NCBI GenBank assembly: GCA_030272155.1
Contig: CP126205.1
Span: forward strand, 2,778,501-2,842,500
DNA: 64,000 nt
Source: Tetradesmus obliquus
Lineage: Eukaryota > Chlorophyta > Chlorophyceae > Sphaeropleales > Scenedesmaceae
Direction: 5' to 3'
This document shows, piece by piece, positions 4,669-63,942 of the stretch; positions within the stretch are counted from its first letter, which is position 1; every line of letters starts with the position of its first letter. Both the position numbers and the translations under genes were made by a program. The notes beneath the pieces were generated by a model that had not been told where the DNA came from, ran no database searches, and worked only from the letters and a program-made list of their open reading frames with translations.

Positions 4669-7590
4669 ATGGCTCTGCGCCAGGCAGCAGGTGGTCTGCT
4701 GAAGCAGCTAGCAGCAGCACCTCTCGAGCTAGGTGGCAGTGCCATACAGCAGCAGGCGACTCTGCTCGGGTGCGGTCGCAGCAGCAACGCGTGTGCAGCA
4801 TCTAAACAATAGCATAATGTGTAATTCATTATTAGTGACCCTGATCGTGGTGCACACCAGCAGCAGCAGCACTGGCTCAACCAGATCCCTATGAACCTGT
4901 ACGCAGGTCTGAGGCTGTTGCCGGCGTTCGCCATGCCTCAAACCAAGCAGGTGAGTCTTATGAATTGTTTAACAGTGCTGCTGCCTGTGCACCTCCCTGC
5001 CAGCGCACCTCCTGCCCAACTTGCTGCTACAATGTACTGTTGCCAGCACCTGCGCTACACTCATCATCACCCAACTGAGCTTGTATGCATCCTCACTCCC
5101 TTACTTACTTGTCCTCAATCAACTGAATGCAAATAATAATTTTCAACAGTCAAGCAGCGCATCAGGGCCATCAAGAACATCGGCAAGATCACCAAGGCCA
5201 TGAAGATGGTTGCCGCGTCAAAGATGCGCAACGCACAGTCAGCAGTCGAGAACAGCAGGGGCATGGTGGAGCCATTCCTGCGCATCTTTGGCGACTTCCC
5301 AGGTGAGGCATGTGACAAGGCAGCTGCAAGTTTGTAGTCGGCGGCAGCAGCAGCAGCAGGGGCATGGTGGAGCCATTCCTGCGCATCTTGGGAGACTTCT
5401 CAGGTGGGGCACTACAGGAATCAGTGTTGAGCCAGCAGCAGCAGCAGCAGCAGCAGCGCCACAGTGCAGCAGAGCCAACCTCAGCAGGCGCAGGTGCAGG
5501 CGCAGGTGCAGGGATACAGGAGACGTCAAGGAATGGAAGGGTGGCCACAGAGCAAGTAGTAGGTACTGCACGTACGCACCAGTAGGCAGCAGTGCTCAGC
5601 CAGCAGCAGGAGCAGCAGCAGCTGCGCCAGCTGCAAGTGCCCAGCCAGCAGCGGCGGCACAGCAGGCAGCTGCGAGACGTAACCAGCAGCAGCGGGCAGC
5701 AAAAGCAGCAGCGGTACCAGGGGCAGTGGATGCAGCAGCTGCCAGCATCAACAACAGCATTGCCAGGTGCTTTGATTCAAGCAGCAGCCGCATGTAACAA
5801 CAGAACTAGTGACAGCAATCAACCACGCTGATGTTTTGAATGTTCTAGCAGCGCGCCAGGGCTTTGGCACGGGGGCCCACCATGCACTTGGCGCAACAGC
5901 AGCACAGATGCTGTCAATGTGAAGAAGTAGCGTAATGCGCAGCGGCAGCAGCAGCAGCAGCAGGTGCTGCTAACCATTACTCTGCAGCACTTGCAGCACT
6001 TGCCAGCTGTGCATTTTGGTGAGGGAGCGCCGTTAAAGTTGTCAGCCACAGCAGCAGGCTGCAGATAGGCTTGCTGAAGGATGCTAGGACAGGTGGCACC
6101 ATGTTTAAATATCTGCTGTAGATCAGCACTGCTCATCAGGAGGTGCAGGCAGCAGCAGTGAAGGGGCAGGCAGCACAGCCCAGCTACCCTACGCAGCGGA
6201 TGGCGCTGGTTGCAGCAGCAGCAGGGGCAGGGCATTATACAGCAGTTATGGAGCGGCAGCATGGCGCCAGTGCTGGAGCAATTTGCACAAAACCACATTC
6301 AAGCAGCAGCTGCTGGGCTTGTGTCAGCATTGCACAGTCAGCTGTATCCTATGCAGCCCAGGGACAGCATGTCCTTCTCCTGCGCTGCAGCTGACACCCA
6401 CCAAGCGTGGCACAGCTGCGTCGTTTGCAGCAGCAGCAGCAGCAGCAGGGCATCAGCTGCAGTGCGGCCCTGGCAGCTGGCATTTGTTGGTGGCAGCTGC
6501 TCACTGTGGCTGTCAACCATGATCAAGCTGGTTGTGCCAGCCTGCCCGCTGCACATTTGTTCAAGATGGGAATCATCTGCTGTGTCTGCTCTGCAGCCGT
6601 AGACCCGCCAAAGACCGTCACTGTGGCTGTCAACTGTGTTGCCAGTGCTTTGGTTGTTTCCAGCCTGTTCACATAACCTGTTATGTTACCTGCTTGCTTT
6701 GTATGCCGCAGCCGTGGACCCGCCCAAGACCATCACAGTGGCTGTCAACCGTGTTGCCAGTGCTTTGTTTCTAGCCTGTTCACGCAACTTGTCATGTCAC
6801 CTGCTTGCTTTATACGCTCCAGCCGTGGACCCGCCCAAGACCATCACTGTGGCTGTCAACCGTGTTGCCAGTGCCTTGGTTGTTTCCAGCCTGTTCAAGT
6901 AACCTGTGCTGTTGTCTGTTTGCTTTGTATGCTGCAGCCGTGGACCCGCCCAAGACCATCACAGTGGCTGTCACATCAGACAAGGGCCTGTGCGGCGGCC
7001 TCAACAGTAACATCACCAAGTACACCAAAGCACTCATGCAGATGTACAAGGGCAGCGGTGAGTGGCGCAGATGCAGCAAAGGCGAAAACAGCAACAGCAC
7101 TTGTCAGCAACACACAACCAGGCCCAGAGTTCTTCTTCATGTGCACACTTACGCAGCACCTGCGGCACCTCCATCGGCTGTCATGTGGACTGTTGTATGC
7201 AGTGCTTGCTGCAGCTGTTACCAAACCCTCTTGACCAGAGCAGAGTAAGACCCTTGAGGTTGTGCTGATTCCAGTCTGCTCGCACTTCTGCTGCTGCTGG
7301 TCATGCTACAGAGGCTGTTGGTGATGCTGACAAGCTGTCGCTGGTGACCATCGGTGACAAGGACCTGAGCTTGTGCTGACGCTAGTTTGTTGCTGCACCC
7401 TCCTGCTGCTGCTGCTGCTGCTGCTGCTGATCATGCTACAGAGGCTGGTGGTGACACCGACAAGCTGTCGCTGGTGACCATCGGTGACAAGGGCCGTGCA
7501 CAGCTGCAGCGCGTGGCGCCGGAGAATATCAAGCTGAGCATCCAGGACACGTACAAGGACAAGGTCACCTTCGGCCAGGTGCGGGGTTGT

Positions 7591-7627
<37 letters not shown>

Positions 7628-9237
7628 GCCTGTGTATCACATGAGCATCCAGGTCACCTACAAGGACAATGTTGCCTCCAGCCAGGTGCGGGGGGACGGT
7701 GTGAGTGTGCAGCAGCAGCAGAGTGAGCTCTGCTCAACGGCAATGTGAGATCCAGCAGCTCACCAGCAGGACCATTGTACCACCTCTGTCAACCCTGCCT
7801 GTTCATCTTTGGGTGTTTGCTGTGCAGGCGTCACTGGTGGCTGAGGAGGTGCTGCGTGAGGGTGGTGACGCTGTGCGCGTGGTCTTCAACAAGTTCCACT
7901 CGGCCATAAGCTTCAAGCCCACGCTGGCCACAGTGCTGACAGCAGAGGTGAGAGCTCTACTGTGCTATTTCTATTGTCAGCTGCTGTGTAGTGTGCGTGC
8001 TTGTCTGTCATGTGCAGGCGCAACAGCTTCAAGCCCACGCTTGCCACAGTGCTGACAGCAGAGGTGGGCGCTGTTAGTTGTCTGGGTGTGGCTGTTGCAA
8101 GCTATCATGTGTTTGCCTTTTATTACCATCGTCTGCAATGACTTCAAGCCCACGCTGGCCACGGTGCTGACGGCAGAGGCACGTTGTGTGATCAGCTGGT
8201 TACAGGGCTGGCTATACAGATGTTTGTAGCTATTGCAGGATCAGGTCAGCAGCCTTGTTTGCGATCCGCTGCGTGTCCAGCTGCTGGCCGGTTTGTATGA
8301 CCAGGTTGTATGAGACGCGCAGCTGGCAGGCAATCAGGGCTGCACCCTCCTGCGTCATCTGCCCCATTTAATCTCTAAATCAAGGCTTTATAACCTCGTG
8401 TTGCTGCTCGGTTTTGTCGTACTTTCTGTCGCTGCAGGCGCTGGACGCGCAGATGGCGGGCGAGTCGGGCAGCAAGCTGGACGTGTACGAGATGGAGGTG
8501 GCCAGCCAGCACCATATGCCCCAGTCGTGCTCTTGAGACCATATTTGTGTCGCCCGTCGGTTCTTGTTACTGCAGGCGCTGGACGCGCGGCTGGCAGGCG
8601 ACCAGGGCTGCACTCTCCTCCGTCATCTGTCTCAGATCACGCCGTTGTAAATGATCAGACTTTGTGTTGCTGCTTGTTTTTGCCGCAGGCGCTGGACGCG
8701 CAGATGGCTGGCGAGTCGGGCAGCAAGCTGGATGTGTACGAGATGGAGGTGGCCAGCGAGCGAGGTGACGCGCTGCAGGACCTGGCAGAGTTCAACCTGG
8801 CAGTGGTGAGCCGGCAGCTTATTGTTGCTTTGGTGATATTCAAGTTCTGTGGCAGTGGAGATTCAGCAGGGCAGAAGGGTGCAGGGGGAGGCACTGCAGG
8901 ACGTGCAGTCTTCTTACGCTGCCGCGGGCGCTGTACATTTCGATGCTGCAGCACAACTGCAGCGACATGTGCGTGTCAGCCACGCAGTACCCCAGCTCAT
9001 GCCCTTGCTTTGTCTCGCTGTGCTGTTGTGCCGCCGCAGACGCTGTACAACGCGATGCTGGAGAACAACTGCAGCGAGCACGCGTCCCGCATGTCTGCCA
9101 TGGAGAACTCCAGCAAGTCTGCCGGGGAGATTCTGGAGCGTCTCACGCTGCAGTACAACCGCGACCGCCAGGCCACCATTACTAACGAGCTCATTGAGAT
9201 CATTTCGGGAGCAGCGGCGCTGGAGGACGCCAACTAA
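4669..9237 (+). CDS. ATP synthase F1 gamma subunit, mitochondrial
   Basis: Central rotor shaft of mitochondrial F1Fo ATP synthase. Exons: 4669-4769, 4907-4950, 5150-5302, 6938-7057, 7442-7578, 7828-7947, 8689-8805, 9040-9237; they close at 329 aa, the usual family length. The N-terminus (MALRQAAGGLLKQLAAAP) looks like a mitochondrial presequence. The mature part begins near 'VKQRIRAIKNIGKITKAM' and contains 'SDKGLCGGLNSNITK', the KFHSAISF region, and the C-terminal helix '[20 protein letters not shown]', which is the family signature. The regulatory cysteine insertion of the chloroplast gamma subunit is absent, so this is the mitochondrial form. The tiny 44-nt exon 2 was chosen because it joins in phase and gives a VRHASNQAVKQRI junction. 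Introns 3 to 7 carry copied exon edges (listed separately), and the 3' end is duplicated downstream. Confidence 0.93.
5253..5406 (+). repeat. Copy of exon 3 end plus donor in ATP synthase gamma intron 3
   Basis: The end of exon 3 with its 5' splice site (about 5259-5305, encoding GMVEPFLRIFGDFPG) recurs at about 5359-5405 with a few changes and again ends in a GT donor (CTCAGGTGGGG). The copy lies in the intron in direct orientation. Confidence 0.85.
6590..6976 (+). repeat. Four-fold array of acceptor plus exon 4 start, ATP synthase gamma
   Basis: A unit of about 110 bp beginning with a GCAGCCGT(G/A)GACC acceptor/exon start occurs at about 6593, 6708, 6818 and 6932. Each has a CAG acceptor followed by sequence encoding VDPPKTITVAV, and the first three then run into similar intron text (GTGTTGCCAGTGC...). 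Only the last copy continues into the full exon 4 (6938-7057). Confidence 0.9.
7295..7700 (+). repeat. Exon 5 edge copies, ATP synthase gamma
   Basis: An upstream copy of the exon 5 acceptor and start (about 7301-7362, GCTACAGAGGCTG...) precedes the real one at 7442, each after a CTG-rich stretch. A degraded copy of the exon 5 end plus donor (about 7644-7692, AGCATCCAGGTCACCTACAAGG...GCCAGGTGCGGG) follows the real donor at 7578. So one exon has its 5' edge copied upstream and its 3' edge copied downstream. Confidence 0.85.
7905..8185 (+). repeat. Three copies of exon 6 end (TTCAAGCCCACGCTGGCCAC unit)
   Basis: The end of exon 6 with donor, encoding FKPTLATVLTAE, is at 7911-7949. It recurs at about 8027-8066 and 8141-8180, with spacing of about 115 bp. 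The second copy retains a GAGGTG donor; the third reads GAGGCA and has lost it. Confidence 0.88.
8430..8764 (+). repeat. Three copies of acceptor plus exon 7 start, ATP synthase gamma
   Basis: GCAGGCGCTGGACGCG units start at about 8435, 8571 and 8685. The first copy extends about 70 bp into exon-like sequence (ALDAQMAGESGSKLDVYEME), the second about 25 bp, and the third is the real exon 7 (8689-8805). Each is preceded by similar T-rich intron sequence. Confidence 0.88.
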
Positions 9238-10263
9238 GCAGCAAGCTGGCGTGCAGAAGACGCAGTCGCTGCAGTGCTTCCGCATGTACTGCTTAGCTGC
9301 AGCTTGCTTGGCAGGATGCTGGTGTGAGGCTGGTGTTCGGTTGAGGCGCATGTACACGCAGTTTGCTTTGGGCAGTCGGCTGCGTTTATAACAGCATGCT
9401 GGCAAGGCTGCAGTAGTCTGCGCTCGTGCTGTCTGGCTGTGTGCTGTGCCAGCAGTTGCGCTCCCCACTGCCGGGACTGCAGCCTTGGCAGCTCGTTGAA
9501 GCCTAGTTTCATAGGTGCCAGCAATCGTGGGGTTGTAAGGATTGGGTGTGGGGTGTGGGGTGGGGTCACACTGTGACAGTGTCACAGTGTCACAGTGTAG
9601 GATAGGTGCGGCTGCAGGGTCTGTCGGGACTGGCCCGCTGCTTGCAGAGTTTAACAACCTGAATTCAGTGTAACGGTGCATGAACCTTGAACGTAGCGTA
9701 ACATTCAACATGAAATTTGAACTCCAGCAAGTCTGCCGGGGAGATCCTGGAGCGGCTCACGCTGCAGTACAACCGCGACCGCCAGGCCACCATTACTAAC
9801 GAGCTCATTGAGATCATTTCGGGAGCAGCGGCGCTGGAGGACGCCAACTAAGCAGCAGGCTGGCGTGCAGCAGACGCAGCTTGCTGCAGTGTTTCAGCAT
9901 GTGCTGCTTAGCTGCAGCTTGCTTAGGCAGGATGCTGGTGTGGGGCTGGTGTTCAGTTGAGGCGCAGTTTGCTTTGGGCAGTCGGCTGAGTTTAACACAG
10001 CCTGCTGGTAAGGTAGTAAGGCTGCAGTAGTCTGCGCTCGTACTATCTGGCTGTGTGCTGTGGCGGCAGTTTGCGCTCCCCACTGCCGGGACTGCAGCCT
10101 GGGCAGCTCATTGAGGCCTAATTTGATTAGGTGCAGCAATCGTGGGGTTGTAAGGGTTGGGTGTTGGGTGGGGTCAAAGTGTAGGATAGGTGCGGCTGCA
10201 GGACCTGTCGGGACTGGCCCGCTGCTTGCAGAGTTTAACAACCTGAGTTCAGTCCAACGGTGC
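9105..10263 (+). repeat. Tandem duplication of the last-exon end plus 3' UTR, ATP synthase gamma
   Basis: About 555 bp (9105-9660), covering the C-terminal 44 codons, the stop and the 3' UTR, is repeated at 9719-10263 with scattered substitutions and small indels. The copy still encodes the same C-terminus and stop. Both copies contain a TGTAA in the same context (GGGGTTGTAAGG). Confidence 0.92.
9534..9538 (+). terminator. Putative poly(A) signal TGTAA, ATP synthase gamma
   Basis: TGTAA is the usual poly(A) signal of chlorophyte algae. It sits 297 nt after the stop and is repeated at 10149-10153 in the duplicated 3' UTR, so two alternative ends are possible. Confidence 0.45.
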
Positions 10264-10969
10264 AAGTTCAGCGTCAAACTGCTGTCAGACATGTGCAGCT
10301 ACTGCAGGGGTTTTAACCCTTATATACTGCAGAATGTACAATCGGCAACTTTCTATATACTGTCTTCCTGCAAATCTTCATACTGTTCAACAGGCCAACA
10401 GCGTTGACCTGCAGCACACTGTGGCAGCTGCAGCACTGGCATATGCAGTGCGCTGCTGTTCGAGCTGGATAGTGCTAAAATATCTTGTCAGCAAGCATTA
10501 AGCACTCTGGAATTGCACGTATCGTGGCAGAACTTGACGAGCGGTCCGCAGCAGCATTGGACGACAGTGACGGAGGCAGCAGTACAGTTCAACCACGCCA
10601 CTCCTTAGATGCGCCGAGTAAAAGATTGTGTACATCTGGATACAGATTCCAAGCTTTACAACGCTCAGCTAGGTGGCTGCAACTTGGTGGGCGATGTTGG
10701 ACCACATACACGCGTGCTGCATCTAGACACTTGGCAACAGCAACAAGCAAATGTGACACTAAAGGGTGTTTTCCGAATGTTGTAGCAGTCATGCCTCACA
10801 AGATCTGGGTAACAACTTGCAAGTGACAATTGCTGCTGCGTCAACTGGAAAGCCCCACCGTTCCGATGGTCAGTCGCGTTTGTGCTTTTGTTTTGATACA
10901 TTGAACATGCAGAAGTAAAGGCGACTGTGCTTGTCACCTGACCACAAACAAGTCAGGATGAGGGCCAAT
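10264..10969. other. Intergenic region upstream of ChlD
   Basis: About 700 bp between the duplicated ATP synthase gamma 3' end and the ChlD start. I see no supported gene. It should contain the ChlD promoter, but no clear motif stands out. Confidence 0.4.
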
Positions 10970-13900
10970 ATGGCCTTGCAGCAGCAATGTAGCAGCAGAG
11001 GTATTAGCAGTAGGCATAGTTTACTAGTTGGCCAGCGCGTGCCCGTTGCCAGCGTGGTGTCACGAGGCAGCAGCAGCACTCGCCAGCTAGTGTGCAATGC
11101 TGTGGCCGCAGATGTCACTGAGGCGGAGGCACGTGGTAAGTAAACATAATGCAGCAATCGGGATCTCGGGATTCAACGGGCGTCAGGGCCTGACGTTGAC
11201 CGGTTTTGCAGCACAAGCAACCATGGAAGCCATGAAGTCCGTGGAGAATGTTGGCTTCGATTACGAGCGTAGCGGGCGTCTGGCGCGTGCTTTCCCCCTT
11301 ACAGCAGTCATTGGTCAGGATTTGATCAAGCAGGCGCTGCTGCTCGGTGCTGTGGACACCCAGCTGGGTGGCATTGCCATTGCTGGCAGGAGGGGCACAG
11401 CAAAGTCAGTCATGGCGCGAGGCCTACATGCGCTGCTGCCACCAATTGAGGTGGTGGAAGGCAGCATCTGCAATGCTGACCCAGATGACCCCCGCGGCTG
11501 GGAGGTGAGGCGCAGCAGCAAGCACAGCAGCAGCGCGTATGCTTGCATGCAGCAGTGCTATCGCACCTGTGGCAGCAACAACTAGCAGCGCATGCCAGCA
11601 GTCATGTGAGCACACAAGTAGTTGTGCACAGCAATTTGGCAGCAGTCTTTCCTGCTTATGTGTTTTATTTGGCGCTTGAGCTGGAGGTAGTGAATGACAA
11701 CAGGCATGTCAGGCCCAGCCTGGATGCATGCCTTCAGCATTTGCTGCGTTGCCATTCTGCAGAAGCTGCACAGCAGTACCTGCCTTGTTCCATTGCATAC
11801 GGTGGTTCATCCACAGCATGTTTTTGCACACGGACAGCTGCCGCATTCGCAGGCCATTGTGCAGCTGGCTTGTCAGCCATGCATTGCCATGATGAACCAG
11901 ATAGGCAGTACATCGTACTGATGCACATTCTGCAACACTGGCAGCTGGACAGCTGGTGTATTGCACATCAGCTGCTGTAGACTACTCTGCACAGGCCACG
12001 GCTCCAACTGCAAGCAAACCCATGCACATGCACTGCTTTTCATTGGTGAAGCGGTATACTTTTTTTTGTCACAGCAAGCACATGCTTTCGTTCGCCCCCA
12101 GGAGCGCTTTGCAACACACTTCACATAATCACCAGCTGTTACCTCGCAGTTTTTTTACTCAAACGCGGGCAATGCCTTTTAGCTTGAACCAAAAGGTTGA
12201 AATGCCTTTTAGCTTGAACCATAAGGTGCAAAAGCAGGAGGGCCTTGCTGAGAAGCTGCCAGCTGGCGAGGTGCCCCGCAACACACTCATTCTCAACCAA
12301 CACCCAAAGCACACACTGCTGCCTGTCTCCCGTTGTTCGTGTTGCCTCACACCTGCTGCTGCAGGAGGGCCTTGCTGAGAAGCTGCCAGCTGGCGAGGTG
12401 CCCCGCAGGATCCGTGAGGCTCCCTTTGTGCAGATTCCCCTCGGCGTGACTGAGGACAGGCTGGTGGGCACAGTGGACATTGAGGCGTCCATGAAGGTGA
12501 GTCACTGCTGCGTGTGTTGGCTGTTGTTCAGTTGCACATGCAGTTGGTGTGGTTTGGGTACTGCTGAACGGTGGACAGGCTGGTGGGCACAGTGGACATC
12601 GAGGCGTCCATGAAGGTGAGGAAGCCGGTGCCACAGTTGAACAGCAGTTTGCATGCATGAAGTGTGGCTGGGTGCATTGTGGACTGAGGACAGGCTGGTG
12701 GGCACAGTGGACATTGAGGAGTCCATGAAGGTGAGGCACTGCTGTGATTCAGTCATGTGCAAATGTGCAACTATTTGTTTTGGATGCGTCAGCTGGGTCC
12801 ATTGCAACTGTATGCGTGACTGAGGACAGGCTGGTGGGGACAGTGGACATTGAGGCCTCCATGAAGGTAAGACGCAACACAAGTTCAGATGCATATTCTG
12901 CCAATTTCAAGTCCCATTGCTGAAGTATGGGTGTCATGGCATGGGTGTTGCAGCCTACCTTGCTGCTCAAAAAGCACAGCGGCATCCTGAATATGCTGCC
13001 TTCGCTTTTCTGATGCCATAATTGCTAATGACCCCATTGTGGCACATTGCACGTATGCAGGAGGGCAAGACGGTGTTCCAGCCTGGCCTGCTGGCTGAGG
13101 CGCACCGCGGCATCATGTACGTTGACGAGATTAACCTGCTGGATGATGGCATCGCCAACCTGCTGCTGAGCATCTTGTCAGACGGTGTCAACACAGTGGA
13201 GCGCGAGGGCATCAGCGTCAGCCACCCGTGAGTGTGAACCTGCTGTTTACTGTCCCGTTGGTTCTGTGCAATTGTTGTGTTTGCGTCCTTGTGTCTCGTT
13301 CCTTGTGTTTGTTGTTGTGCGGATTTGAAGTAAAGGTGTGTGCCATCATGCCTCATGCCTGGTGCTTGAGGTGTTATGTTGACGAGATCAACTTGCTGGA
13401 TGATGGCATCGCCGACCTGCTGCTGAGCATCTTGTCAGATGGCGTGAACACAGTGGAGCGCGAGGGCATCAGCATCAGCCGCCCGTGAGTTTGGTGCTAT
13501 TATATTGATGTCCTGTTATTTCCTGTGCTGCTGCTGCGTTTGTGTCCTTCTCTGTGTTGCATGTGTTTTGTTTAGTCTTACATCACATGTGGTGTGTGGG
13601 CTATCATGCCTAATGCGTGTTGCTTGGAGTGTTATGTTGACGAGATGAACCTGCTGGATGATGGCATCGCCAACCTGCTGCTGAGCATCCTCTCGGATGG
13701 TGTCAACACCGTTGAGCGCGAGGGCATCAGCATCAGCCACCCGTGAGTGTGACCTGGCTACTTTGATGTTTTTCGAGTTACTTTGTTTGCAGCTGTTGTG
13801 TTTGCGTCGTTGTCTGTGGTTCCCGTGTTTTGTTGTGTGGATCCCATCTGAACTGTGCACAACTTTGGGCATATTGAGCATAGTCTTGTGCTTGGATCGT

Positions 13901-15030: not shown

Positions 15031-18000
15031 AATTCAGGTCATCCTTGCGCGTGAGTACTTGAAGGAGGTCAACATCAGCTCCGACCAGGTCAAGTACCTG
15101 GTGGAGGAGGCGCGCAGGGGCGGCGTGCAGGTGGGTTTGAACGCAGAAGTGACAACAAAAGTAACAACACAGGTAACAGATGTGTTGTAGGTGCATGTGA
15201 TTTTGGTGTGACCAAGCGGACAGCTCCCTTGCTGCACATTGGTCATTGCCCTTGGCCGAACAGAGTCTGCTGCATCAAATAGTTTTCTCCGTCACATGCA
15301 CCTTGGTCTCGTGTAACACCTGGCCCGCTACTCTCACCAACCGCAACGCCTGCGCCTGCAGGGTCACCGCGCGGAGCTCTTTGCGGTGCGTGCAGCCATG
15401 GCAGCAGCAGCGCTGGAGGGCCGCGACAACGTGAACAAGGATGACCTGCGTCAGGCGGTCAACCTTGTTATTTTGCCGCGGTCCATCCTGCTGGACCAGC
15501 CGCCTCCAGAGGACGAGGCTCCACCCCCGCCCCCTCCTCCCCCTCCTCCCCAGGTAAGGTTTGGGGCTTGGTTGGCAAGAGAGCAAAGACAGTACAGCAC
15601 GTGCAGCTGCGGCTAATCCAACAGCTTGCATCACTCTCATCGCCCAGCAAGCTTGCTCAAGCTGTGATGAAGTGCTGCAAGTTGTTTCAGATAGGTCTGC
15701 TCATCAGCCTCTTCTGCACTTTATGTTTTGTACGAAGCGAGCATTGGCAAGCCAGCATACTCCTTGCTTGCGTATTTGCCTGGTTCAAATCTTACGATAT
15801 GCACGATATCAATTGCTGGAGATTAACATGTTAATGTTCTTTGCTTGCTTGCAGGACAACATGGAGGACCAGGAGGAGGAGCAGGACGAGGAGGACAAGG
15901 ACGAGGATAAGGAAGAGGAGGAGGAGGACAAGGACGTGAGCTTTCGAATTTAATTTAATGTGACATTGTTAAGTTATGTTGTTTCGGCTTCACTGCAGTT
16001 TATCAGTGTCACAACAAGTCAGCTTGAGCACGTGCAACCTGTGCCATGAGTGAGGCAGTATGCAAGCCGTCAGCTACGGCACAAGCACTGCGCTTCTTGT
16101 GCACGGCTCGCCTCTCAACTTTGCGATGATGATGCTGTATCCTACACCCGCTGCTGCTTGCAGGAGCCGGACCAGATCCCAGAGGAGTTTGTGTTTGGAG
16201 CGGAGGGCGTCATCCTGGACCCCAGCATCCTCATGTTTGCACTGCTGCTGCTGCGGCCGCTGCTGCTGCTGCTGCTGCTGCTTGCAGGGGCCGGACCAGA
16301 TTCCAGAGGAGTTTGTGTTTGAAGCGGAAGGCGTCATCCTGGACCCCAGCATCCTCATGTTTGCACTGCTGCTGCTGCTGCTGCTGCTGCTGCTTGCAGG
16401 AGCCGGACCAGATCCCAGAGGAGTTTGTGTTCGAGGCTGAGGGCGTCATCCTGGACCCCAGCATCCTCATGTTTGCGCAGCAGCAGCAGCGCGCGCAGGG
16501 GCGCAGCGGGCGCGCCAAGAGCCTCATCTTCAGCGACGACAGGGGCAGGTGGGAAGCATGGGAAGCAGTTTGCTGGTTTTATAACTGTTACTTTGTGTAC
16601 AATGCGTAGTCAGGGCCGCAGCAGGCGCGCCAAGAGCCTCATCTTCAGCGACGACAGGGGCAGGTGGGAAGCATGGAAATCAATTTGCCAGCTTGGACTT
16701 TTGCCGATTGTTCAAATTCACATTATCCAAAGACTGACTGCCAGTGTGCTGCTGGGCCAACAGCGACATTGGAATTTGGCAAAGTCTGCCCTTCTTGCCC
16801 CGCCACACAATTCATCCTTGTTGTAACCCTGTGCTGCACCCTGCTGCTGCTGCTGCTGCTGCTGCTGCCCTGCAGGTACATCAAGCCCATGATTCCCAAG
16901 GGTGACAGGGTCAAGCGCCTGGCAGTGGACGCCACGCTGCGCGCAGCAGCGCCATTCCAAAAGGTGGGCACAGCCACATGATGGTCACATGTGTCACAGT
17001 GAGGGTGATGGCAGCAGCTGGCTCACCAATGCCCAAATTACGCTATTTGTTCATGCCCGCCAACCAACAAATCATCTTGCCAAAAAGATGGCACCAGGAA
17101 GGCATTGACAACGGCATTCACCCGCTACAGTAGTGCTCACAACCTGCAACCACCTGCTCATCATCTAAACTGCCCTGCAGATCCGCCGCCAGGAGGCGAT
17201 TGACAAGGGCACCACGCAGCGCCGCGTGTATGTTGAGAAGCCCGACATGCGCAGCAAGAAGCTGGCTCGCAAGGCCGGCGCGCTGGTGCTTTTTGTGGTG
17301 GATGCCAGCGGCAGCATGGCGCTGAACCGCATGAGCGCTGCCAAGGGCGCCTGCATGCGGCTGCTGACAGAGTCCTACACCAGCAGAGACCAGGTGCGCA
17401 CTGTGTTTGTTACGTATCATTGTGATGCTGACGTTTTGGTTGTGCTGCCGATGGCGAGCTGCACCAGCGTGTGCCTCATCCGCCCAGCAAATCTATTGCT
17501 GATCCCTACCTACAACACTGCTGCTTTGGAAACCCCTGTGACAATTTACTTAAACGCCGCTGTTTGATCTTCAGGTGTGCCTGATCCCCTTCTACGGCAG
17601 CAAGGCCGAGGTGCTGCTGCCGCCCAGCAAGTCCATCATGCATGTTCACATCCTTCAAACCATCTTTCTGTCTTATTTTTGTCACTTCTGTGTCATTCTC
17701 AGGTGTGCCTGATCCCCTTCTACGGCAGCAAGGCTGAGGTGCTGCTGCCGCCCAGCAAGTCCATCAGCATGGCCCGCAAGCGCCTGGACCAGCTGCCATG
17801 CGGTGGAGGCAGCCCCCTGGCACACGGCATCTCGACAGCAGTACGCACAGCCATCCAGGCGCAGGCAAGCGGCGATGTGGGCCGTGTAATGATGGTGCTG
17901 ATCACAGATGGCCGCGCGAACGTGACGCTGGCGAAGAGCAATGAGGATCCTGCAGCGATGGACCCGGATGCACCGAAGCCCACCGCAGACGAGCTCAAGG

Positions 18001-20393: not shown

Positions 20394-23300
20394 ATGATGG
20401 CTCAGCAGAGCTTTAGTATTCAGCGCAGGAGTTTCGGGGCTCGCAGCAGCAGGCAGCAGCAGCTGAGGCACTTTGGGCCCTCTACTGTGCAACAGTTCAG
20501 AGCACCATGGCAGCCCCTGCAACCCAGCCCGCTGCAGCAGCGGCACGAGCAGCTGCTTTCAAATCACTCTACGCAGCCTCACAGCTTGCAGCAGCACAGC
20601 AGCAGCAGTAGCAGCAGGCCGCTGCTGCAGCCAGGCGCAGCTGTGCGCAGGTCAACAGCAGTAGCAGCAGCTGCTGCTGCAGGCGGGGCGGGAGCTGCAG
20701 TAGTAGTTCAGGAAGACAATAAGTCTGAGCTTTACAGCTTGATCCACTCAATACCGTACAGGAGGCTGCTGCTGTGGGCGGGCGTTGCAACAGTGGCCTG
20801 GCAAATGCACGATTTCTTTGGGGTGAGTGCAAGGACGCGTAATGATCCGGACAGAGATGCCCTATACGTATACATTCACAAAGTAAAACACTTTCTTAGA
20901 GCCTAAGTGCCAGGATATGTGCAGTTGCAGCCTTGCCACTGTCGCATGAATGCACAGTAACCTTGTAGCAGCTGGCAGCGCTGCTGCGCACAGCATCTCT
21001 GCAGTACGCTTTGAACAGTAGTCACCTCTGCAGCAAGTATGATGCATGTGACGGCATACACAGCCGCAGCGCAATAACAAACGATTGACCGCAGCAGCCA
21101 TTTGCATCAGTCAGGACAATGTCCCCTGCAGCAGTTGATGGCGCCATTGAGGCAGGAAGTGATTGTAATAAGGTGCATCAGCAGGTTGCCAGTCACCAAG
21201 TAAAGCAATCGTGAGCTGACAGGCTCAAGCCTGTGGCGGCCCCTGGTCCTGCGTTTGCGATGGTACAATGCAGCAGCGTACATTTGGGATAGTTGGGAGT
21301 GTGTTGGTGTCTGCTGCGTCGCCTGCGCTGCGCACCTGGCGCACTATGCAGAGGCATCAGCCGTTCGGAGTCCAGTGCCCTGTTCTTCCTAATCATCATG
21401 TCAGCAACATATGCACGCTAATGACACTGGGATGCTGCTGCTTCGAGGGAGCCATACACGTGAAGTAGCAGCATGGTGCCAGCCAATGCAGCTGCAACTG
21501 TGTGCTGGGTCTAAAGGTATCCTACAGACTTCCGACTGCCTGTGCACTTCCATCAACAACAACTATGTACGGCATGCTGCTGCTGCTGCTGCTGCAGATT
21601 GTGATGGGCACATTTATTGTGGCCTTCATAGGAAACTCATTCATCGTCAACACAATCGACAGCCAGCTGCTGCAGATGGTGCAGCCGCAGCGAGACACCA
21701 GGTGACTGCTGTGCGGAAGCAGCAGTCGCAGCAGCAGGAGCACAGCCGTGCTGCATCATGACACTCTTATACGTTTGCAGTTGCGTTGATGATGAAAGCT
21801 TTCGTTGTGGGTGCTGCTTGGGTGCAAGCTCAGAGCACCTCCGTCTTGCAAGTTGATGCCTGACTGCAGCGAGTAGACTTGGCTGTTGCGGCTGTTGATG
21901 CCTGAGGCTGGTGCGAGCAGCAGCAGCAGCAGCTGAGACTATACGGCGGGACATGCTGCCACTGCCTGCTTCATCCTCCGCCCCTGATTGTTACATACGT
22001 GCAGGCGGCGGCTGCTGGTGGTGATCTACTTTGCCATCATCATCGCGTTCATCACGCTGTTTGGCGTGATGACCATCCCCGACATCGTGCGCGAGGGTGC
22101 AGACTTCATCCGGCGGCTGAAGAGCGACAACGTGTGGGTGATCCTGGTGGAGAAGATGCGCCACGGCCTGGGGTGAGTCAGAGGCGATTGCAATTCACTA
22201 ATACGAGCATACATTGTGATGCCTCTTGGGTGTGTGGTGTACGTGCATTGGTAGGTTGCCGGTCTGCACAACGTGTGGGTGATCCTGGTGGAGAAGATGC
22301 GCCACGGCCTGTGGTGAGGTGACTTCCTATGTTTCTGGCATATGGTGCAATGTATTGTATTGCCTTGTTTGCGCCCTGTGTGTTGTGGATGGCGACAACG
22401 TGTGGGTGATTCTGGTGGAGAAGATGCGCCACGGCCTGGGGTGAGTCAGAGGCGATTGCAGTTCACTGATACGAGCATACATCGTGATGCCTTTTGGGTG
22501 CGTGGTGTATGTGCATTGGTAGGTTGCTGGTCTGGAGACTTTGTGGGTGATCCTGGTGGAGAAGATGCGCCACGGCCTGGGGTGAGTCAAATGCAACTTG
22601 ATATTAGTAACAAGGGCATTTATCTGTAGACGTACATCGTGATGCCAATTGGGTGCGTGGTGATCATGCATTGATGGGTTGCTGGTCTGGACAGTGTGTG
22701 GGTGATCTTGGTGGAGAAGATGCACCACGGCCTGGGGTGAGTGCATTAGGTGGCTGCTGGTGCATCGATGTGCAGCAATCCTTCTCGTGTGAGCGCTGTA
22801 TGGGGTTGGCAAATGTGATCTACGTGCGAATCATGTCATGACTGTGGTACGGCTACTGCCAATGTTTCAGGCATATGACGCAATGTGTTGTAGTGCCTTG
22901 TTTGCGGCCTGTGTGTTGTGGGTGGCGACAACGTGTGGGTCATCCTGGTGGAGAAGATGCGCCACGGCCTCGGGTGAGTGAGTCGGGTATGTGATGTCTG
23001 CAACACCCTGCTTTTGTGTGTCCAATGCCTTGATAGTTTGCTGGTCTGAACAACGTGTGGGTTGTCCTGTTATGTATTGGAAATGCTCCTCGGTTTGGGT
23101 TGAAGCGGCTGTTCTTTCATCACCTCTGCTGCTTTCTGCACTGTCTGCCTCTATGCTTGCTTGCAGCAGTCAAGAGATGGAGAGCCTGGAGCGCTTTGTC
23201 ATGCTGCTATGCGCTGCTGACTGCTGCTGCTGCTGCTCTGTTTTGCAGCGAGGTGGTGATGGAGAGCTTGGAGCGCTTCGTCATGCTGGCCACCAGCAAC

Positions 23301-41539: not shown

Positions 41540-42562
41540 ATGGCGGCAGTGCTCACTGTCGACGAAGAGGTGTTCAAAAGTGCAGCACGTGTGACCAGCG
41601 CGTTCCTGCTGCTGCTCGCTGGCTGCCTGGTGTGGCAGGGCGTCACCAGGACCAGCCATATGATTGCGGTACGCTGCAGGAATTTTGGTCAACTTTGACC
41701 CAACTTTGACCAACTGTGAACATGGCAGTGTCACATGCTGCAGCGCGTATTGCTGCCTGCACAGTTTACACACTGCGCAGCAGTGCCAGCGCAACAGCAG
41801 CTGTGTGCAGCTACTGCGTATGCCGCAAGGCTCACCTGGGGAGGCTCGAGCAGCATGCATGCCAGATCATTTACAGCGCAGTATGCACACTGACATCTGC
41901 TCAGGATGCCTGCAGCCATGTTACTAGAGAGCCAGTAAACCTCTGCTCAACTGTTGGCAGTCCTTACAGACAGACAAACCAAACAAGATGAGCGGTGCCG
42001 CACCAATGCAAGGAATGCGCAGAGTGCGCAACGCACTGCAATGCACTCGCCCTGCTGACGTGGATGTCGCTGTTTTTATTCATCAAGCTGCTGTCACGCT
42101 GCCGCACCAGGCGGTCAAACGCATGGAGCGCTACAAGCGGTCAAAGGATGCCAGCCTGCTGCCCATTGACCGCACCGTTTGCGTAACTGGCTGTCTGCAT
42201 CAAACTGCTGCCGCTGCTGCGCCAGGCGGTCAAGCGCAAGGAGCGCTTTGAAAGCACAGCTGCAACCACCCGTTTCAGCACAGGGAATCTGCCGCTCATG
42301 TGTTGCTTGCCCATCCACTTGCATCCAACTGCTTCCGCTGCTGCATAGGCGGTCAAGCGCAAGGAGCGCTATGAGCGGGCAAAGGATGTCAGCCTGCTGC
42401 CCATTGACCGCACCGTTTGTGTTACTGGCTGTTTCCATGCAACTGCTGCTGCTGCTGCTGCTGCAGCAGGCGGTCAAGCGCAAGGAGCGCTATGAGCGGG
42501 CAAAGGATGTCAGCCTGCTGCCCATTGACCGCACCGTTTTTGTTGCTGGCTGTTTCCATCCA

Positions 42563-42600
<38 letters not shown>

Positions 42601-44272: not shown

Positions 44273-45794
44273 TCATAACATGCCTATGCGGTTGCTGCTG
44301 CCGCTCCTGCTGCTGCTGCTGCTGCTGCTGCCAGCCGCCGTGGGACACAAGCAGCCCCGCAGTGGGACACGTGGACTAATCGCATTGAAGATCTGCCAGG
44401 CCAGCATATCATACCCCTTCTCTGTCAGATGCAGCAGATCGTCCTGCATCTCTGCCCTCCTCTCAGGAGGCATTGACCAGAAGCCAAACCAAAAGCTCGG
44501 CAGCTCTGCTAGATACACACGAGGCTGCCCACAGTCCCCTGCAGCAGGCTGTGCTGCCACCCAGTTGCGCATCAGCACGGCGAGTTCTAGCCGCTGCTGC
44601 TCATTTTTGCTGCTGCGGGAGACGAAGCGGTTGGGGAAGGGAGGGATGGCAAGGACGTTGGCTCCGGAAGCAGTTGCCAGCCGGTAGGCCTGCAGTTGAG
44701 CCAGTCATAGCACACAGAAGGAGTGACGTTAGGAGTGGAAGTGCTTAGGGAGTAATTAAGCAAGTGGCAACCATGCTGCAGGAGTGACGTTGGCTGGTCC
44801 GGAAGCAGTTGCCAGCTTGTATGCCTGCAGTTGAGCCGGTTACAGCACACAGAAGAAGTGACGTTGGAGTGGAAGCGCTCAGGAGTGATCACGCAAGTTG
44901 TAACGTTACCATGCTGCAGGGGTGATGTTGGCTCCTCCGGAAGCAGCTGTCAGCCGGTAGGCCTGCAGGGGTGGAGGGTGGGAGCAGTTGTGTGAGATGT
45001 GAGAGGTGTGAGGTGTGAGGGTGGGAGCAGTTGTGTGAGGTGTGAGGGTGGGAGCAGTTGTGTGAGGTGTGCCACATGCTGCAGCTGGTTAGAAGTAGTA
45101 GTAGTGCATGCAGGAGCATACGCAGCGCGTTGCTGTCGCTGCAGTGCTGCGGCTGCACATGTGCGCCCCAACATGATGCACTGTTGCTGCATTGCTTCTG
45201 CAAGCATCCTCTCACCGTGCATGCGGGGTGTTGCTGCATCCTGACATTTGAACACATCCCTGTCAGTCGCCTGCAGCAGCATCCCCGCCACACATGTAAG
45301 CATATGTTTCCCCTAACTGCACTCGAGCTCACCTCTACAAGCTTTGGCATGATTGCAGCTGCAGTGTAGTTGCCAGCGCCCAGGTCATTCACTCCTGCCA
45401 TTACTACCACCCACTGGTAACCCTGGCCTTGCTGCTTTGCCTGCTCCAGCTGGCTTTGCATGAGTGGGACAAGTGTGACATCTAACACCTGCCCGTTGTC
45501 TTTGGCCTTTTGGAAGACACCCATGTGGTTGAAAGCTGTGAGGCAGCAGCAGCAGCAGCAGCAGCATCAGCAGCAGGAACAGCAGGGTGACGTACTGTAG
45601 CAGGGTTTGTGTAAGCAAGCTTCTGCAGGCGGTGTGGGCGGTTGCGTGCTGTCCAGTGGAGCAAACTTTGGTAGCTGGAGGCTGCTCTACAGTTGCTCAG
45701 TGCACGCACACACTTGCTAAAAGCTTATGGTGTTGGAGTGGTGTTTCTGGCAGGCTGCCGGTGTTGCTGTGCACATTGAGCCAGCTGCTGCTGC

Positions 45795-48400: not shown

Positions 48401-49081
48401 GGTGTTGGAAGGAATGTAACAAGTGCAGGAAGCACCGCCACCCCACAGCAGGCAAGCGTGCCTGCAGCACTAAGTGCCCTTGGCAATTGCCCAGCAGCTT
48501 ACAGTGCAAGCGTAGTCATAGACAGACCCCCAGCATGCATGCCAAGCTCAAGGCTCAAAGGCAAGTGTTGAAGCATCATCCCAGCTGGCAGTACGGCAGA
48601 ACAGCTAGCTGCTGTCATTATGTTGTGTTGTAGTCAACCCTGTATACAGAAGCCGCCAAACTATGACCTAGTAGGTCACTGGCATTCAATGCTTGCTGGC
48701 ATGATGCTGATCAGCCGCAGCCACTCACTGGTGAGCCTTTGACAGCCTCATTGAGCAGCGCCTTGAAAGCTGCCCCTTCCTTTTGGGCCACTGGCCATTG
48801 CTGCTCTGAACAATAATCATATTCGAGCACAGTTTGTAAAGCCACTCACCGGTGAGCCCTTTACTGCCTCTTTCAGCAGCGCCTTGAAAGCGGCCCCTCC
48901 TTTTGGGCCACTGGCATTCACTGCTGTAGTTGAACGATTAAAAACATTTGATCATCAACGGATATTGGCAGGCAGATACTCACTGGTGAGCCCTTGACTG
49001 CCTCTTTCAGCAGCGCCTTGAAAGCAGCCTGGTCGTTCATCAGCTCCTCCAGCTGCTGCACTGAGTATCTGCAGCGGCAGC

Positions 49082-52149: not shown

Positions 52150-55100
52150 ATGGCGCTCACCCACGCGCACTCTGTGTCGCTGCCACCGCTGCCACCACAG
52201 GTAAGTTTAAATGCATAGATGCTATACCAGTAATGTTTATAACAGTAGTAAACCGATGAGGGCAGTCATTAGAAGGAGCTGGACGATGCAGGCTCACTCT
52301 CAGGCTGGCCTGCCCAACACTTTGCCATCAGTTGTTCAATCGTAATTTGTCAAGTCGCATCATCAACTAACGTAGATGAGGTCAAACTTACCCACGGTCA
52401 ACTTTCTCTGTGCTGCTGCCCTTCCTGCTTCAGCACTCGCTGCCACAGCTGCCGCCGCAGCACTACCTCACGCCTCAGCTGAGAATGTCACACTCCCTGG
52501 CGCCGCAGCACAGCACGCCACTGCTGCCGCAGCACAGCATGCCGCTGTTTCCGCAGCACAGCACACCGCTGTTGCAGACAGTGGAGAGCAGGCTTGCAGG
52601 ACCGGAAACATCCTTGGACATTGGCTCGCTACAGCTGCCAGAGGCTTCAAAGTCATCTGCTGCTGGCCATGCCTGCAAGGCTTGTCAGGCTGGATCCATT
52701 GGTGCCAAGCATTGCAGCAGCTCATCGGCTGCCATGGGGAGCTCTGCTGCAGCAGCAGGCAGCAGCAGCATCGGCACCTGCAGGATCTGCTTTGAGCAGG
52801 TGTGGCCACTGTGGTGTTGATTGCATCATGTTTGATGTTTTGTGCTGCAGTGTTTGGCTTGCACGATGCAGCTGCTGTTGACACGGCATGTCATCTTGTG
52901 CATGTTTTAGCTTAAGCTTTGGCAGCTCAACCTCTTTGAGCACGTCCGCGGCCGCAAGCAGCGCCAGCAATGGCACCTGCAGGATCTGCTTTGAGCAGGT
53001 GCAGGGGCACAGCAAGGCAGCGGCTGTGGTGCAGCGTTCGGTCTGTACCCTGCAGCTGCCTGTCATCTTGTACATGTTGTCAGGCTTGCTCAGGCTGGCT
53101 AATGCTCCTGCACCTTGCAATGCTGCATATATCAGGCCAAATTCTACAATCCACTTTGACCTATGAAATGGATGTGTTGCAGGATGGCATTGACAAGCCG
53201 GAGGATGCCGCCAACCCGCTGATTACGCCTTGCCAGTGCACTGGCAGCAGGTGAGGTCCCCGCCACAGCATACAGGCACAATACATATGAATATTCTTGC
53301 CGCTGTATACTTGCTGCTGATTGTGCCCAGCCAGTGCACAGGCAGCAGGTGAGGCCACTGACAGGGCAGACAGCAACATTGTACTGTAAATTTGGCATAC
53401 GTGTATCGTTCCTGCTGTGCACAGTGACATTGAGAGAGAAGCAGGGTGACGTGGACACTGCTGACATACATGTGTAAGGCTTGTGACTACATCCACTAAG
53501 CTTGCTGATGTGCTGTTGCGCCTGCAGCAAGTACGTGCACCGGCTGTGCCTTAAGCAGTGGCGGGAGAAGAAGCACCGCAGCGACGCCTTCTTCCAGTGC
53601 GAAGTGTGCCAGTACAGGTGGGTGGCTGCTGCTGCGTGCTTTCATGCAGCTAAACAGTGATGCTCCTGATGTTGAGCAGCATTGGCACACTTCGCTCTTC
53701 CAGTGCGAAGGGTGCCAGTACAGGTGGGTGGCTGCTGCAGCGTGCTTTGATGCAGCTGTGCAGTGATGTTCCTTGATGTAGCAGCATAGGCACACTTCCG
53801 TTCTTCCAGTGCGAATTGTGCCAGTACAGGTGGGCGGCTGCTAAAGTGTGCTTTGCAGCTGTGCAGTGATGTTCCTGATGTTGAGCAGCATTAGCACACG
53901 TCGTTCTCCCCAGGGCGAAGTGTGCCAGTACAGGTGGGCTGCTGCTGCTGCAATGTGCTGTGATGCAGCTGTGCAGTGATGTTCCTGATCTTGAGCAGCA
54001 TTGGCACACTTCCGTTCTTCTAGAGCGAAGTGTGCCAGTACAGATGGGCTGCTGTGTGATGCTAAAAGTGTGAATGTGTCATGTTCAGGCCCATTGGCTG
54101 TAGAGCCTGCCGACACCCGCCCATGCATTTAACATAGAAAGCAACAACATGGTAAGGCTGCTGCTGCAGCTGTTGCGCCTGCTGCATCTCCCTCACAGGC
54201 ACCGCCACCTGTGGTGGTCCCACCTGCTGGGTGGCCACCAGACAATCCTTACAGCACAGACAACCATGTGACGCTGTCGTTGCTGCTGCTGCTGCTGCTG
54301 CTCTTATTGCATTTGTCTCACAGGTACCGCTACCGCCGCCTGTGGTGGTCACACCTCCTAGGCCACCAGAACACGCTCACAGCACTGTTCATGGTGACGC
54401 TAGTGGCTTGCATAGCCCTACTGGGCTTTGTGCCGATTACAAACACCTTCTTCCTCGGGCCAACCAGCAGCAGCAGCAGCAGCGGCAGCAGCAGTAGCGG
54501 CGGCGGCAGCGGCAGCGGCATCTTTGGAGGGTTTGGGGGTGCTGGGATCGGCCTCGGCAGCAGCAGCATTGATGTTGATCCATTTGGCGGGAGTTACATC
54601 AGCAGCAGCAGCGGCAGCAGCAGCATTGGCGGCGGCGGCATCGGCAGCAGCCAGGCAGCAATGCGGCAGCATGCTGCCATGCATGCAGCACTGCCGCACC
54701 CCCAACACACAAGGCCAGGGTTTGCTTCCGGCACCCCTCCTGCAGCAGCAGCAGCAAGGCACGCATCAACCCTACCAGCAAGCCCGATCAGCTACTTTGT
54801 GGTCCACACATTCAACGGCTTAATCCTCATGGCACTGCTTGGCTTGATGCTGAGCCTCATGATGAAAGTGGGCCGGGCTTTTGGACTGCCTGCATTGGCA
54901 CTGCTGCCTGATCCATGGTCCAGCACTGGAGCTTGCCTCTGGTGCATGGATCTGCACGGAGGGCTGTCTCCCTTTGTGACTTGCAGCAGCGGAGCCGGGG
55001 AGTGTGGGCTCGCAGTGCTTGTCATTATGTCAGTGCTGATGCTGATGCTGGGGCTGGTGCTTGCGGCATATCTGCTGTATGGTGTGCTGTGGGTGCTGGT

Positions 55101-63788: not shown

Positions 63789-63835
63789 GTCACCGTGTGA
63801 CCACATTGAGTGATATGTCCAGAGCCATCACGCTG
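63255..63835 (-). repeat. Six-fold array of the QPRT terminal exon end and stop
   Basis: Minus-strand units encoding T(H)SVMALDIS... and ending in GTGGTCACACGGTGACCAGC plus a CAG tract lie at about 63830 (used), 63725, 63630, 63525, 63435 and 63340. On the plus strand they read CTGCTG...GTCACCGTGTGACCACATTG. The two nearest the gene are near identical; the outer ones are more diverged. Each repeat sits next to a CTG/CAG run. This is the same terminal-exon duplication as in the ATP synthase gamma, amylase, VPS37 and MAPEG-like genes. Confidence 0.88.
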
Positions 63836-63942
63836 TGTGTCAGTGCGCCCACACTAATGAAGTCAACGCCTGATGACGCAATCTCTGCAACGCTCTGCAG
63901 CGTAACATTGCCGCTGGCCTCTGTCTGCACTTTGCCAGCAAT
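63790..63942 (-). CDS. Quinolinate (nicotinate-nucleotide pyrophosphorylase) phosphoribosyltransferase, last exon
   Basis: Converts quinolinate and PRPP to nicotinate mononucleotide in NAD synthesis, in plastids of plants. Only the last exon (63942-63790) is in the window; the gene continues beyond 64000. It encodes '[20 protein letters not shown]' and '[19 protein letters not shown]', the hallmark NadC C-terminus (E.SGNI....i..ya..GVD.iS.G.LTHS...lDiSL). The exon ends VVTR and stop. The acceptor CTGCGCAG/ATTGC was chosen because it leaves 51 codons in phase and starts just before KVQTEASGN. The stop and last codons are repeated in the array that follows. Confidence 0.9.

What the first reader, a model, noticed from the sequence alone, without database searches (positions are those of the whole stretch)
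5150..63942. Exon-edge reiteration: splice sites with adjoining exon pieces are tandemly copied into introns in most genes
At least nine multi-exon genes on both strands (ATP synthase gamma, ChlD, AI-2E, amylase, MAPEG-like, SGNH, VPS37, RING-CH, QPRT) show the same arrangement. The exon start plus acceptor is copied upstream, or the exon end plus donor is copied downstream. Copies are always local and direct, one to about five extra, with units of 60-260 bp. More than 30 copies are seen. Copies often keep open frames and GT/AG signals, so introns are filled with plausible alternative splice sites. The graded divergence suggests repeated events over time, not an assembly fault. I know of no named process that produces this specifically at exon borders. 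Possible drivers are triplet-run slippage, replication restart at spliceosome- or R-loop-linked breaks, or selection for splice-site redundancy. PGR5, MOG1 and (as far as I can see) condensin lack it.
Basis: partly seen in the sequence, partly recalled or inferred. Interest (0 to 1): 0.9.

Follow-up and report, generated by a model that had tools for sequence, protein, structure and literature searches.

The report
Tandem-duplicated splice-site edges in alga
In this green-alga genome many exon ends sit next to extra partial copies of themselves, splice site included; the copies look like mostly neutral leftovers of small tandem duplications that stay recognisable mainly because exon sequence is slow to fade.

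Summary
There, 72 direct repeat pairs, all within 1 kb, stand against 2 inverted; 53 intron-side copies lie at 30 predicted exon edges. In 254 kb, 81 of 275 tested edges have a copy.

Judged by the noncoding half of the units alone, no excess at exon edges is detectable (48.6 vs 53.9 per 100 kb of opportunity inside introns; ratio CI 0.46-1.72), and introns show a similar period. Decoy splice dinucleotides (99 of 118 kept) and in-frame stops (9 in 1180 codons) sit at neutral expectation; codon-position counts leave room for weak constraint.

Unexplained: in 11 of 17 single-copy cases the exon half is at least 90% identical while no spacer homology is detected, and a uniform neutral simulation does not give the edge peak. 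I infer homogenisation by the real exon; edge-targeted copying is not excluded. Closest precedent: one potato gene. New variant of a known kind.

The parts
5251..5411 (+). ATP synthase gamma: exon end + donor (edge 5302) and one downstream copy (donor 5403)
   Evidence: exon-part identity 0.91, both GT
6581..6973 (+). ATP synthase gamma: real acceptor edge 6937 with three upstream copies (6596, 6711, 6822), spacing 111-115
   Evidence: exon-part identity 0.84-1.0, AG kept in all three
7301..7495 (+). ATP synthase gamma: acceptor edge 7441 with upstream copy 7311
7535..7693 (+). ATP synthase gamma: donor edge 7578 with downstream copy 7685
7909..8179 (+). ATP synthase gamma: donor edge 7947 with copies 8063 and 8178 (the last lacks GT)
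   Evidence: 7947 and 8063
9105..10264 (+). ATP synthase gamma: last exon end + 3' flank, duplicated downstream (9105-9558 vs 9719-10264)
   Evidence: both coding parts match PF00231 to its end
12418..12872 (+). ChlD-like: donor edge 12496 and three downstream copies (12615, 12730, 12866)
13061..13751 (+). ChlD-like: large part of an exon in three copies (donors 13227, 13484, 13742), period 257/258
16150..16506 (+). ChlD-like: acceptor edge 16399 with upstream copies 16163 and 16287, CTG runs between them
16509..16688 (+). ChlD-like: donor edge 16548 with copy 16663
17560..17770 (+). ChlD-like: acceptor edge 17702 with copy 17574; exon part 97% identical, no spacer homology detected
22124..22982 (+). 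AI-2E transporter: donor edge 22172 with five copies (22313, 22440, 22581, 22736, 22973); at least two classes of spacer
24167..24692 (+). AI-2E: acceptor edge 24590 with copies 24411 and 24225
24916..25130 (+). AI-2E: donor edge 24980 with copy 25115 (exon part 97% identical, no spacer homology detected)
35301..35514 (+). Alpha-amylase: acceptor edge 35466 with copy 35306
35656..36027 (+). Alpha-amylase: donor edge 35720 with copies 35869 and 36021
   Evidence: 35869
36245..36560 (+). Alpha-amylase: acceptor edge 36505 with copies 36386 and 36267, spacing 119/119
38006..38429 (+). Alpha-amylase: start of the predicted exon 38377-38574 and three upstream copies, period 121-122
   Evidence: not listed by my edge probe
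42081..42723 (+).
   Evidence: copies without splice dinucleotide; no Pfam hit for the 43060-43236 exon
44654..44968 (-). GDSL/SGNH-like: acceptor edge 44689 with copies 44824 and 44962
48717..49029 (-). VPS37-like gene region: donor edge 48983 with copies 48849 and 48728
53589..54054 (+). RING-variant gene: donor edge 53617 with copies 53723, 53829, 53933 and 54043 (the last without GT)

Best explanation
The genome undergoes frequent local tandem duplication with a typical unit near 120-140 bp, within predicted genes about three times as often as elsewhere. Units wholly inside an exon or covering a whole exon are mostly removed because they spoil the protein; units inside introns survive but fade; units crossing one exon edge survive because the outermost splice site still defines the intact exon, so exon-start copies end up upstream and exon-end copies downstream. 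The extra edge ('decoy') lies in the intron and decays like neutral DNA. Its exon half stays recognisable because the real exon hardly changes and, I infer, because the decoy is now and then rewritten by the nearby real exon (gene conversion), while the intron half, free to take indels, drifts beyond recognition. Shown: locality, orientation, period, direction rule, decay of splice dinucleotides and stops at the neutral level, no detectable edge excess by the noncoding half. Inferred: removal by selection, gene conversion, and the molecular cause of the duplications.
For: Local and direct: 72 direct vs 2 inverted in the window; one inverted pair in 19 further readable stretches. Similar period in intron-only (median 136.5, n=40), coding-involved (139, n=140) and intergenic pairs (155, n=23) (some 'intron-only' pairs there are decoys of unpredicted edges). 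Near-constant spacing within many arrays (111/115, 257/258, 119/119, 145/146), not in all (268/141/392). Direction rule 12 of 13 and 7 of 7 by Pfam hits in four families, beside 2 whole and 3 other copies (p 4e-5). With exons and decoy pieces masked: edge 48.6, intron-only 53.9, intergenic 18.2 per 100 kb; genic vs intergenic p 5e-5. Exon-side substitution 0.074 vs intron-side 0.148 in the 62 of 82 pairs with alignable intron side, half as expected if mainly the decoy drifts. Codon-position mismatches 125:96:228 (sums), ratio about 2, the ceiling for a neutral decoy beside a constrained exon. GT/AG kept 99 of 118 (CI 0.76-0.90); stops 9 vs 8.3-10.4 expected. Homogenisation: AI-2E copies 22172 and 22313 differ at 1 of 46 exon bases though their spacers show no homology beyond 10 bp, while spacer pairs 22172/22440 and 22313/22736, which I take for a later, larger duplication, are 93% and 88% alike.
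Against: A forward simulation of uniform tandem duplication with neutral decay gives fewer copies at edges than in introns (ratio 0.52-0.56 in all 5 settings), whereas probes find 2-3 times more at edges: decay alone does not make the pattern. In single-decoy arrays with exon identity >=0.9 spacer homology is found in only 6 of 17 (14 of 38 single-decoy arrays in all), not as expected of a simple head-to-tail duplication. Exon-half identity hardly depends on intron-half alignability (means 0.856 to 0.897). Other codon-position counts are above 2: real-decoy 48:39:156 and decoy-decoy 60:39:136, decoy-only changes 8:10:28, 2.57 with CI 2.06-3.17, decoy-decoy 2.43 with CI 1.73-3.24; they share much of the same data and leave room for some constraint on decoys. 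Indels are rarer on the exon side than half the intron-side rate (0.71 vs 2.48 per 100, 7 and 30 events). The birth-rate test rests on 16 and 29 events. Gene conversion was not tested directly.
Confidence: 0.6

Rival explanations
1. Edge-targeted copying: a process linked to splicing or transcription copies the exon edge (about 45-70 bp of exon plus 15-20 bp of intron) and places it about 120 bp into the intron, without the spacer; it is not a tandem duplication.
For: 11 of 17 single-decoy arrays with exon part >=0.9 identical show no spacer homology; intron-side similarity in 11 such copies fades within 20-30 bp; copy frequency peaks at the exon edge and falls to 0.09-0.13 at 75-90 bp inside the exon; uniform simulation fails; duplications are commoner in genes than between them.
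Against: Free placement should also drop exon-interior pieces into introns, yet exon centres have few copies (11.2%); periods do not differ between single-decoy arrays with and without intron-side homology (median 128 both, KS p 0.75); multi-decoy arrays do show spacer homology (33 of 47 at p<=0.05); noncoding halves show no edge excess.
Confidence: 0.2
2. Functional redundancy: decoy edges are kept by selection as spare splice sites or alternative exon ends.
For: Third-position excess even between decoys (ratio 2.43, CI 1.73-3.24; 60:39:136); most decoys keep GT/AG (99 of 118); exon side more conserved than intron side between decoys (0.90 vs 0.77-0.79 at 20-44 bp); few exon-side indels.
Against: GT/AG retention and in-frame stops match neutral expectation; in the kinesin array, differences among decoys fall on all codon positions while the real exon differs mainly at third positions (by eye); an edge-only copy cannot be joined to the rest of its exon without a further splice site (inference).
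Confidence: 0.08
3. Triplet-run instability: CAG/CTG runs near splice sites break or slip and duplicate the adjoining edge.
For: Several window units carry a run; the seven kinesin copies are separated by CTG-rich runs; run near a block boundary 0.47 vs 0.27 shifted control in the window (n=34).
Against: Over the sample 0.28 vs 0.28 for any boundary (n=162) and 0.35 vs 0.31 inside the period; masking of runs itself makes blocks end at runs.
Confidence: 0.07
4. Assembly artefact: arrays come from mis-resolved repeats.
For: No reads could be inspected.
Against: Most copies differ from the real edge by substitutions and indels and form graded series; the same pattern occurs on other contigs.
Confidence: 0.03

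Closest known systems
Tandem genomic duplication across an intron-exon boundary, potato RdRp gene (Ma, Lan and Niu 2016, PMC4974935; abstract and passages seen)
   Same: A direct tandem duplication holding intron end + acceptor + exon start; splice signals inherited from the parent edge.
   Different: One gene, one event, and a new intron supported there by RNA-seq; here 81 of 275 tested edges, both donor and acceptor side, up to 6 copies in the kinesin gene, no evidence that the copies are spliced.
Rogers/Hellsten/Gao-Lynch model: exonic AGGT duplication makes a new intron (as described in PMC3443670 and PMC4974935, passages; the original papers not read)
   Same: Internal tandem duplication inside genes as raw material for gene-structure change.
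   Different: There the duplicated piece is exonic and becomes an intron; here the duplicated piece straddles an existing splice site and lengthens an existing intron.
Tandem-duplication introns in Drosophila (PMC2891723, passages)
   Same: Duplicated splice-like sites in tandem.
   Different: Seven introns there potentially arose from proto-splice-site duplication; here 128 edge copies in 254 kb.
Haematococcus lacustris repeats (PMC7617258, outline and passages)
   Same: Green alga with mostly short interspersed repeats organised in tandem; 47.3% of the genome repetitive.
   Different: The passages shown say nothing about exon edges; the species of this window is not known to me.

Membership tests
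Tandem genomic duplication crossing an intron-exon boundary | Direct orientation, local | tested here: met
   72 direct vs 2 inverted, all direct pairs within 1 kb
Tandem genomic duplication crossing an intron-exon boundary | Unit spans the splice site, so both exon and intron sides are copied | tested here: met
   Intron-side homology above the random 95% level in 62 of 82 pairs; 20 of 82 fail
Tandem genomic duplication crossing an intron-exon boundary | Head-to-tail: the spacer is homologous to the sequence flanking the copy | tested here: inconclusive
   Multi-decoy arrays 33 of 47, single-decoy arrays 14 of 38 at p<=0.05
Tandem genomic duplication crossing an intron-exon boundary | A new intron is made and spliced | not testable with these tools
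   No transcripts available
Introner elements (defining feature from PMC3443670 passages, and recall) | Similar copies dispersed in introns of many genes | tested here: not met
   In the window only: no direct pair spaced more than 1 kb at E<=1e-4 with triplet runs masked; other contigs not compared
Mutually exclusive tandem exons | Whole exons duplicated, each with acceptor and donor | tested here: not met
   115 of 148 copies are edge-only by my exon models; 33 cover the whole predicted exon and are not excluded
Mutually exclusive tandem exons | Copies under coding constraint | tested here: inconclusive
   Stops at neutral level but codon-position ratio 2.1-2.6
Satellite or minisatellite | Many homogeneous head-to-tail copies | tested here: not met
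   63 of 70 edge families have 1-3 copies beside the edge

The most novel reading that the evidence does not exclude
Exon edges act as masters that repeatedly print or rewrite copies of themselves, splice site included, into the neighbouring intron at a fixed distance near 120 bp, through a transcription- or splicing-linked repair process, so that intron sequence is continually reseeded from exon borders.
Probability: 0.2. Interest if true: 0.85.

Novelty: new variant of a known kind. Interest (0 to 1): 0.6.

Why it matters
If about three in ten exon edges carry partial copies, most of them with a GT or AG in place, this genome is a natural experiment on splice-site choice: each array asks which of several similar sites is used, and at what error cost. 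It offers a simple route by which introns grow and new introns or exons could arise; the atypically long introns of Chlamydomonas and its relatives were left unexplained (PMC8226300, passages). It also warns that gene predictions here will include decoys as exons, as my own gene finder did.

Tried and rejected
Rejected: dispersed introner-like elements (no long-range direct pairs in the window); inverted repeats; CAG/CTG runs as the general driver. The first gene-finder run gave many micro-exons and a triplet-biased acceptor model and was replaced. A lenient gapped alignment is weak at telling homology on the intron side, so I added random-intron controls and stricter scoring. Early signs of coding constraint on decoys weakened when copies were found by an exon-only probe and compared with neutral expectation; still leave some room. 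An age-matched count that favoured edges 8-fold (20 edge loci, 4 intron-only pairs) used unequal detection for the two classes; with one and the same detection the excess vanished. Uniform neutral simulation failed to give the edge peak and is reported as evidence against. The second ATP synthase gamma locus on C9 showed no local repeat in two overlapping stretches of 3.2-3.3 kb. Rfam: no match at gathering threshold in the window. In the listings and passages seen of ten paper searches there was no report of genome-wide exon-edge arrays; only an open-access library was searchable. Papers opened for outline or passages only: PMC7617258, PMC4974935, PMC2891723, PMC3443670, PMC7955037, PMC8226300, PMC11228838, PMC5552973. 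The organism was not identified.

Rows dropped: L027 (all N) and L015 (satellite-like) from then on; L025 and L010 in part and, also L024; L025, L010, L024 and L019 and in the analyses built (68, 71, 72); predicted genes under 150 coding bases; exons under 30 or 60 bases, by call; probes with many masked bases; periods of 300 or more and spacers with under 30 unmasked bases. In one search hits were clustered within 6 kb and a copy needed 70% overlap with a longer hit; by this mechanical rule a few 'copies' may be neighbouring exons whose profile ranges overlap. The family searches score only the best candidates, so counts are lower bounds.
Full report
WHAT WAS CHECKED. The window is G000:C15:2778501-2842500 of a 104.66-Mb, 17-contig genome. 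From its genes (ATP synthase gamma, a ChlD-like gene, others) and structure I take it to be a green alga; the species was not identified. Masked self-BLAST gives 72 direct pairs, every one spaced 1 kb or less, and 2 inverted.

BEYOND THE WINDOW. Twenty 10-kb stretches at random places in the first 0.1-2.9 Mb of the 17 contigs were fetched (one reads N throughout). Local direct repeats are present in 18 of the 19 readable ones, and an inverted pair in one. I wrote a small gene-finding model, trained on this sequence. With 40-bp probes, local direct copies at >=65% identity are found at 30.4% of donors (n=168), 37.4% of acceptors (n=123), 11.2% of exon centres (n=116), 14.0% of random intron places (n=336) and 5.3% of intergenic places (n=189); reverse-complement controls give 0 to 0.5%. 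With five more stretches the set is 294 kb with 64 predicted genes and 408 exons. An exon-only probe on deduplicated edges of 254 kb (four repeat-rich stretches left out) finds a copy at 81 of 275, and 118 of the 128 copies lie on the intron side, at 75 edges. An independent check without my gene finder uses Pfam hits over the whole genome for four families (PF00133, PF00118, PF00225, PF00122): of 315 hits in 77 clusters, 25 are nested copies; exon-start copies lie upstream in 12 of 13 cases and exon-end copies downstream in 7 of 7, with 2 whole and 3 other copies besides. A kinesin gene has six extra exon starts in a row, each followed by a CTG-rich spacer.

IS IT AN EXON-BORDER PROCESS? The raw peak at edges is real, but exon sequence fades more slowly than intron sequence, so edges are easier to see. 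I therefore masked all predicted exons and all decoy exon pieces and repeated the search: what remains is the noncoding half of each unit, found by one and the same test for every class. Per 100 kb of opportunity there are then 48.6 edge-crossing loci, 53.9 intron-only pairs and 18.2 intergenic pairs (16, 29 and 20 events). Edge to intron-only ratio: CI 0.46-1.72; genic against intergenic p = 5e-5. An earlier count with unequal detection had suggested an 8-fold edge excess; I set it aside for that reason. The period of neighbouring copies is similar in introns and at edges (medians 136.5 and 139; intergenic 155 with n=23). So the birth process looks like general local tandem duplication, commoner within genes.

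ARE THE DECOYS FUNCTIONAL? Between real edge and decoy, mismatches by codon position are 125:96:228 (summed). A neutral decoy beside a constrained exon can give a ratio of up to about 2 (composition adds nothing: factor 0.96), and this is about 2.1. Other counts on overlapping data are higher: 48:39:156 and, between decoys, 60:39:136; 2.57 (CI 2.06-3.17); between decoys 2.43 (CI 1.73-3.24). Weak constraint is therefore not excluded. The splice dinucleotide is kept in 99 of 118 decoys; the mismatch rate at codon positions 1 and 2 in the same set (about 0.088 per site, worked out by hand) predicts about 0.83. In-frame stops: 9 in 1180 decoy codons against 8.3-10.4 expected under neutral drift. 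Where the intron side is alignable, exon-side divergence is half of it (0.074 vs 0.148 in 62 of 82 pairs), as expected if mainly the decoy drifts; exon-side indels are somewhat rarer than that (0.71 vs 2.48 per 100, 7 and 30 events). I conclude that the decoys are mostly neutral.

WHAT DOES NOT FIT. A forward simulation of uniform tandem duplication with neutral decay gives fewer copies at edges than in introns (ratio 0.52-0.56 in five settings); the real data show the opposite. In arrays with a single decoy and an exon part at least 90% identical, the spacer shows homology in only 6 of 17, and in 11 such copies intron-side similarity fades within 20-30 bp. Exon identity hardly depends on how well the intron side aligns (means 0.856, 0.876, 0.867, 0.897). 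Something keeps the exon half young. Two readings remain. One is homogenisation of decoys by the real exon (gene conversion): periods do not differ between single-decoy arrays with and without intron-side homology (median 128 in both), and in the AI-2E gene two copies differ at 1 of 46 exon bases though their spacers show no homology beyond 10 bp, while spacers of what I take for a later, larger duplication are 93% and 88% alike. The other is a copying process that takes only the exon edge. I favour the first, at 0.6 for the whole explanation, and give the second 0.2.

CAG/CTG RUNS. Triplet runs are common, and many acceptors sit in or behind a CTG run, but over the sample block boundaries are not clearly nearer to runs than shifted controls are (0.28 vs 0.28 for any boundary, n=162), and the masking used biases this measure. 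The association seen in the window (0.47 vs 0.27, n=34) did not hold in the whole sample.

KNOWN OR NEW. The elementary event is known: in a potato gene a tandem duplication crossing an intron-exon boundary made a new intron (PMC4974935, abstract and passages); a review calls tandem genomic duplication a prevalent route of intron gain (PMC3443670, passages), and a Drosophila study gives cases (PMC2891723, passages). In the listings and passages I saw of ten searches of the open library there is no genome in which about three in ten exon edges carry such copies. I therefore call it a new variant of a known kind.

LIMITS. Gene models are my own and without transcripts; the sample is 294 kb plus the Pfam survey; no reads, strains or relatives could be examined; the birth-rate test rests on few events; opportunity was computed from my own exon models.

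Noticed in passing
L015 (C7:2554001-2564000): About 94% of the stretch is covered by direct repeats with a median spacing of 935 bp: satellite-like array, GC 0.50.
   Followed up: no
L009 from about 2513: A 288-bp unit repeated over about 2.4 kb at 99.9% identity: a young minisatellite.
   Followed up: no
L025 (C17:454001-464000): Half of the stretch is local direct repeats, including edge families with up to 8 members; may be a repeat-protein gene.
   Followed up: partly
window 9105-9558 and 9719-10264: The last coding exon end and 3' flank of ATP synthase gamma are duplicated downstream; the copied coding end still matches the Pfam profile to its end.
   Followed up: partly
294-kb sample, four stretches left out: Noncoding tandem duplications are about three times as dense in predicted genes as elsewhere (45 vs 20 events, p 5e-5), which hints at a link with transcription; missed genes could blur it.
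   Followed up: partly
window, whole: 7895 of 64000 bases lie in runs of CAG/CTG/CGG/CCG-class triplets; predicted donors mostly read CAG|GTGNG.
   Followed up: no
L027 (C2:531001-541000): The stretch reads N throughout: a gap or a withheld part.
   Followed up: no
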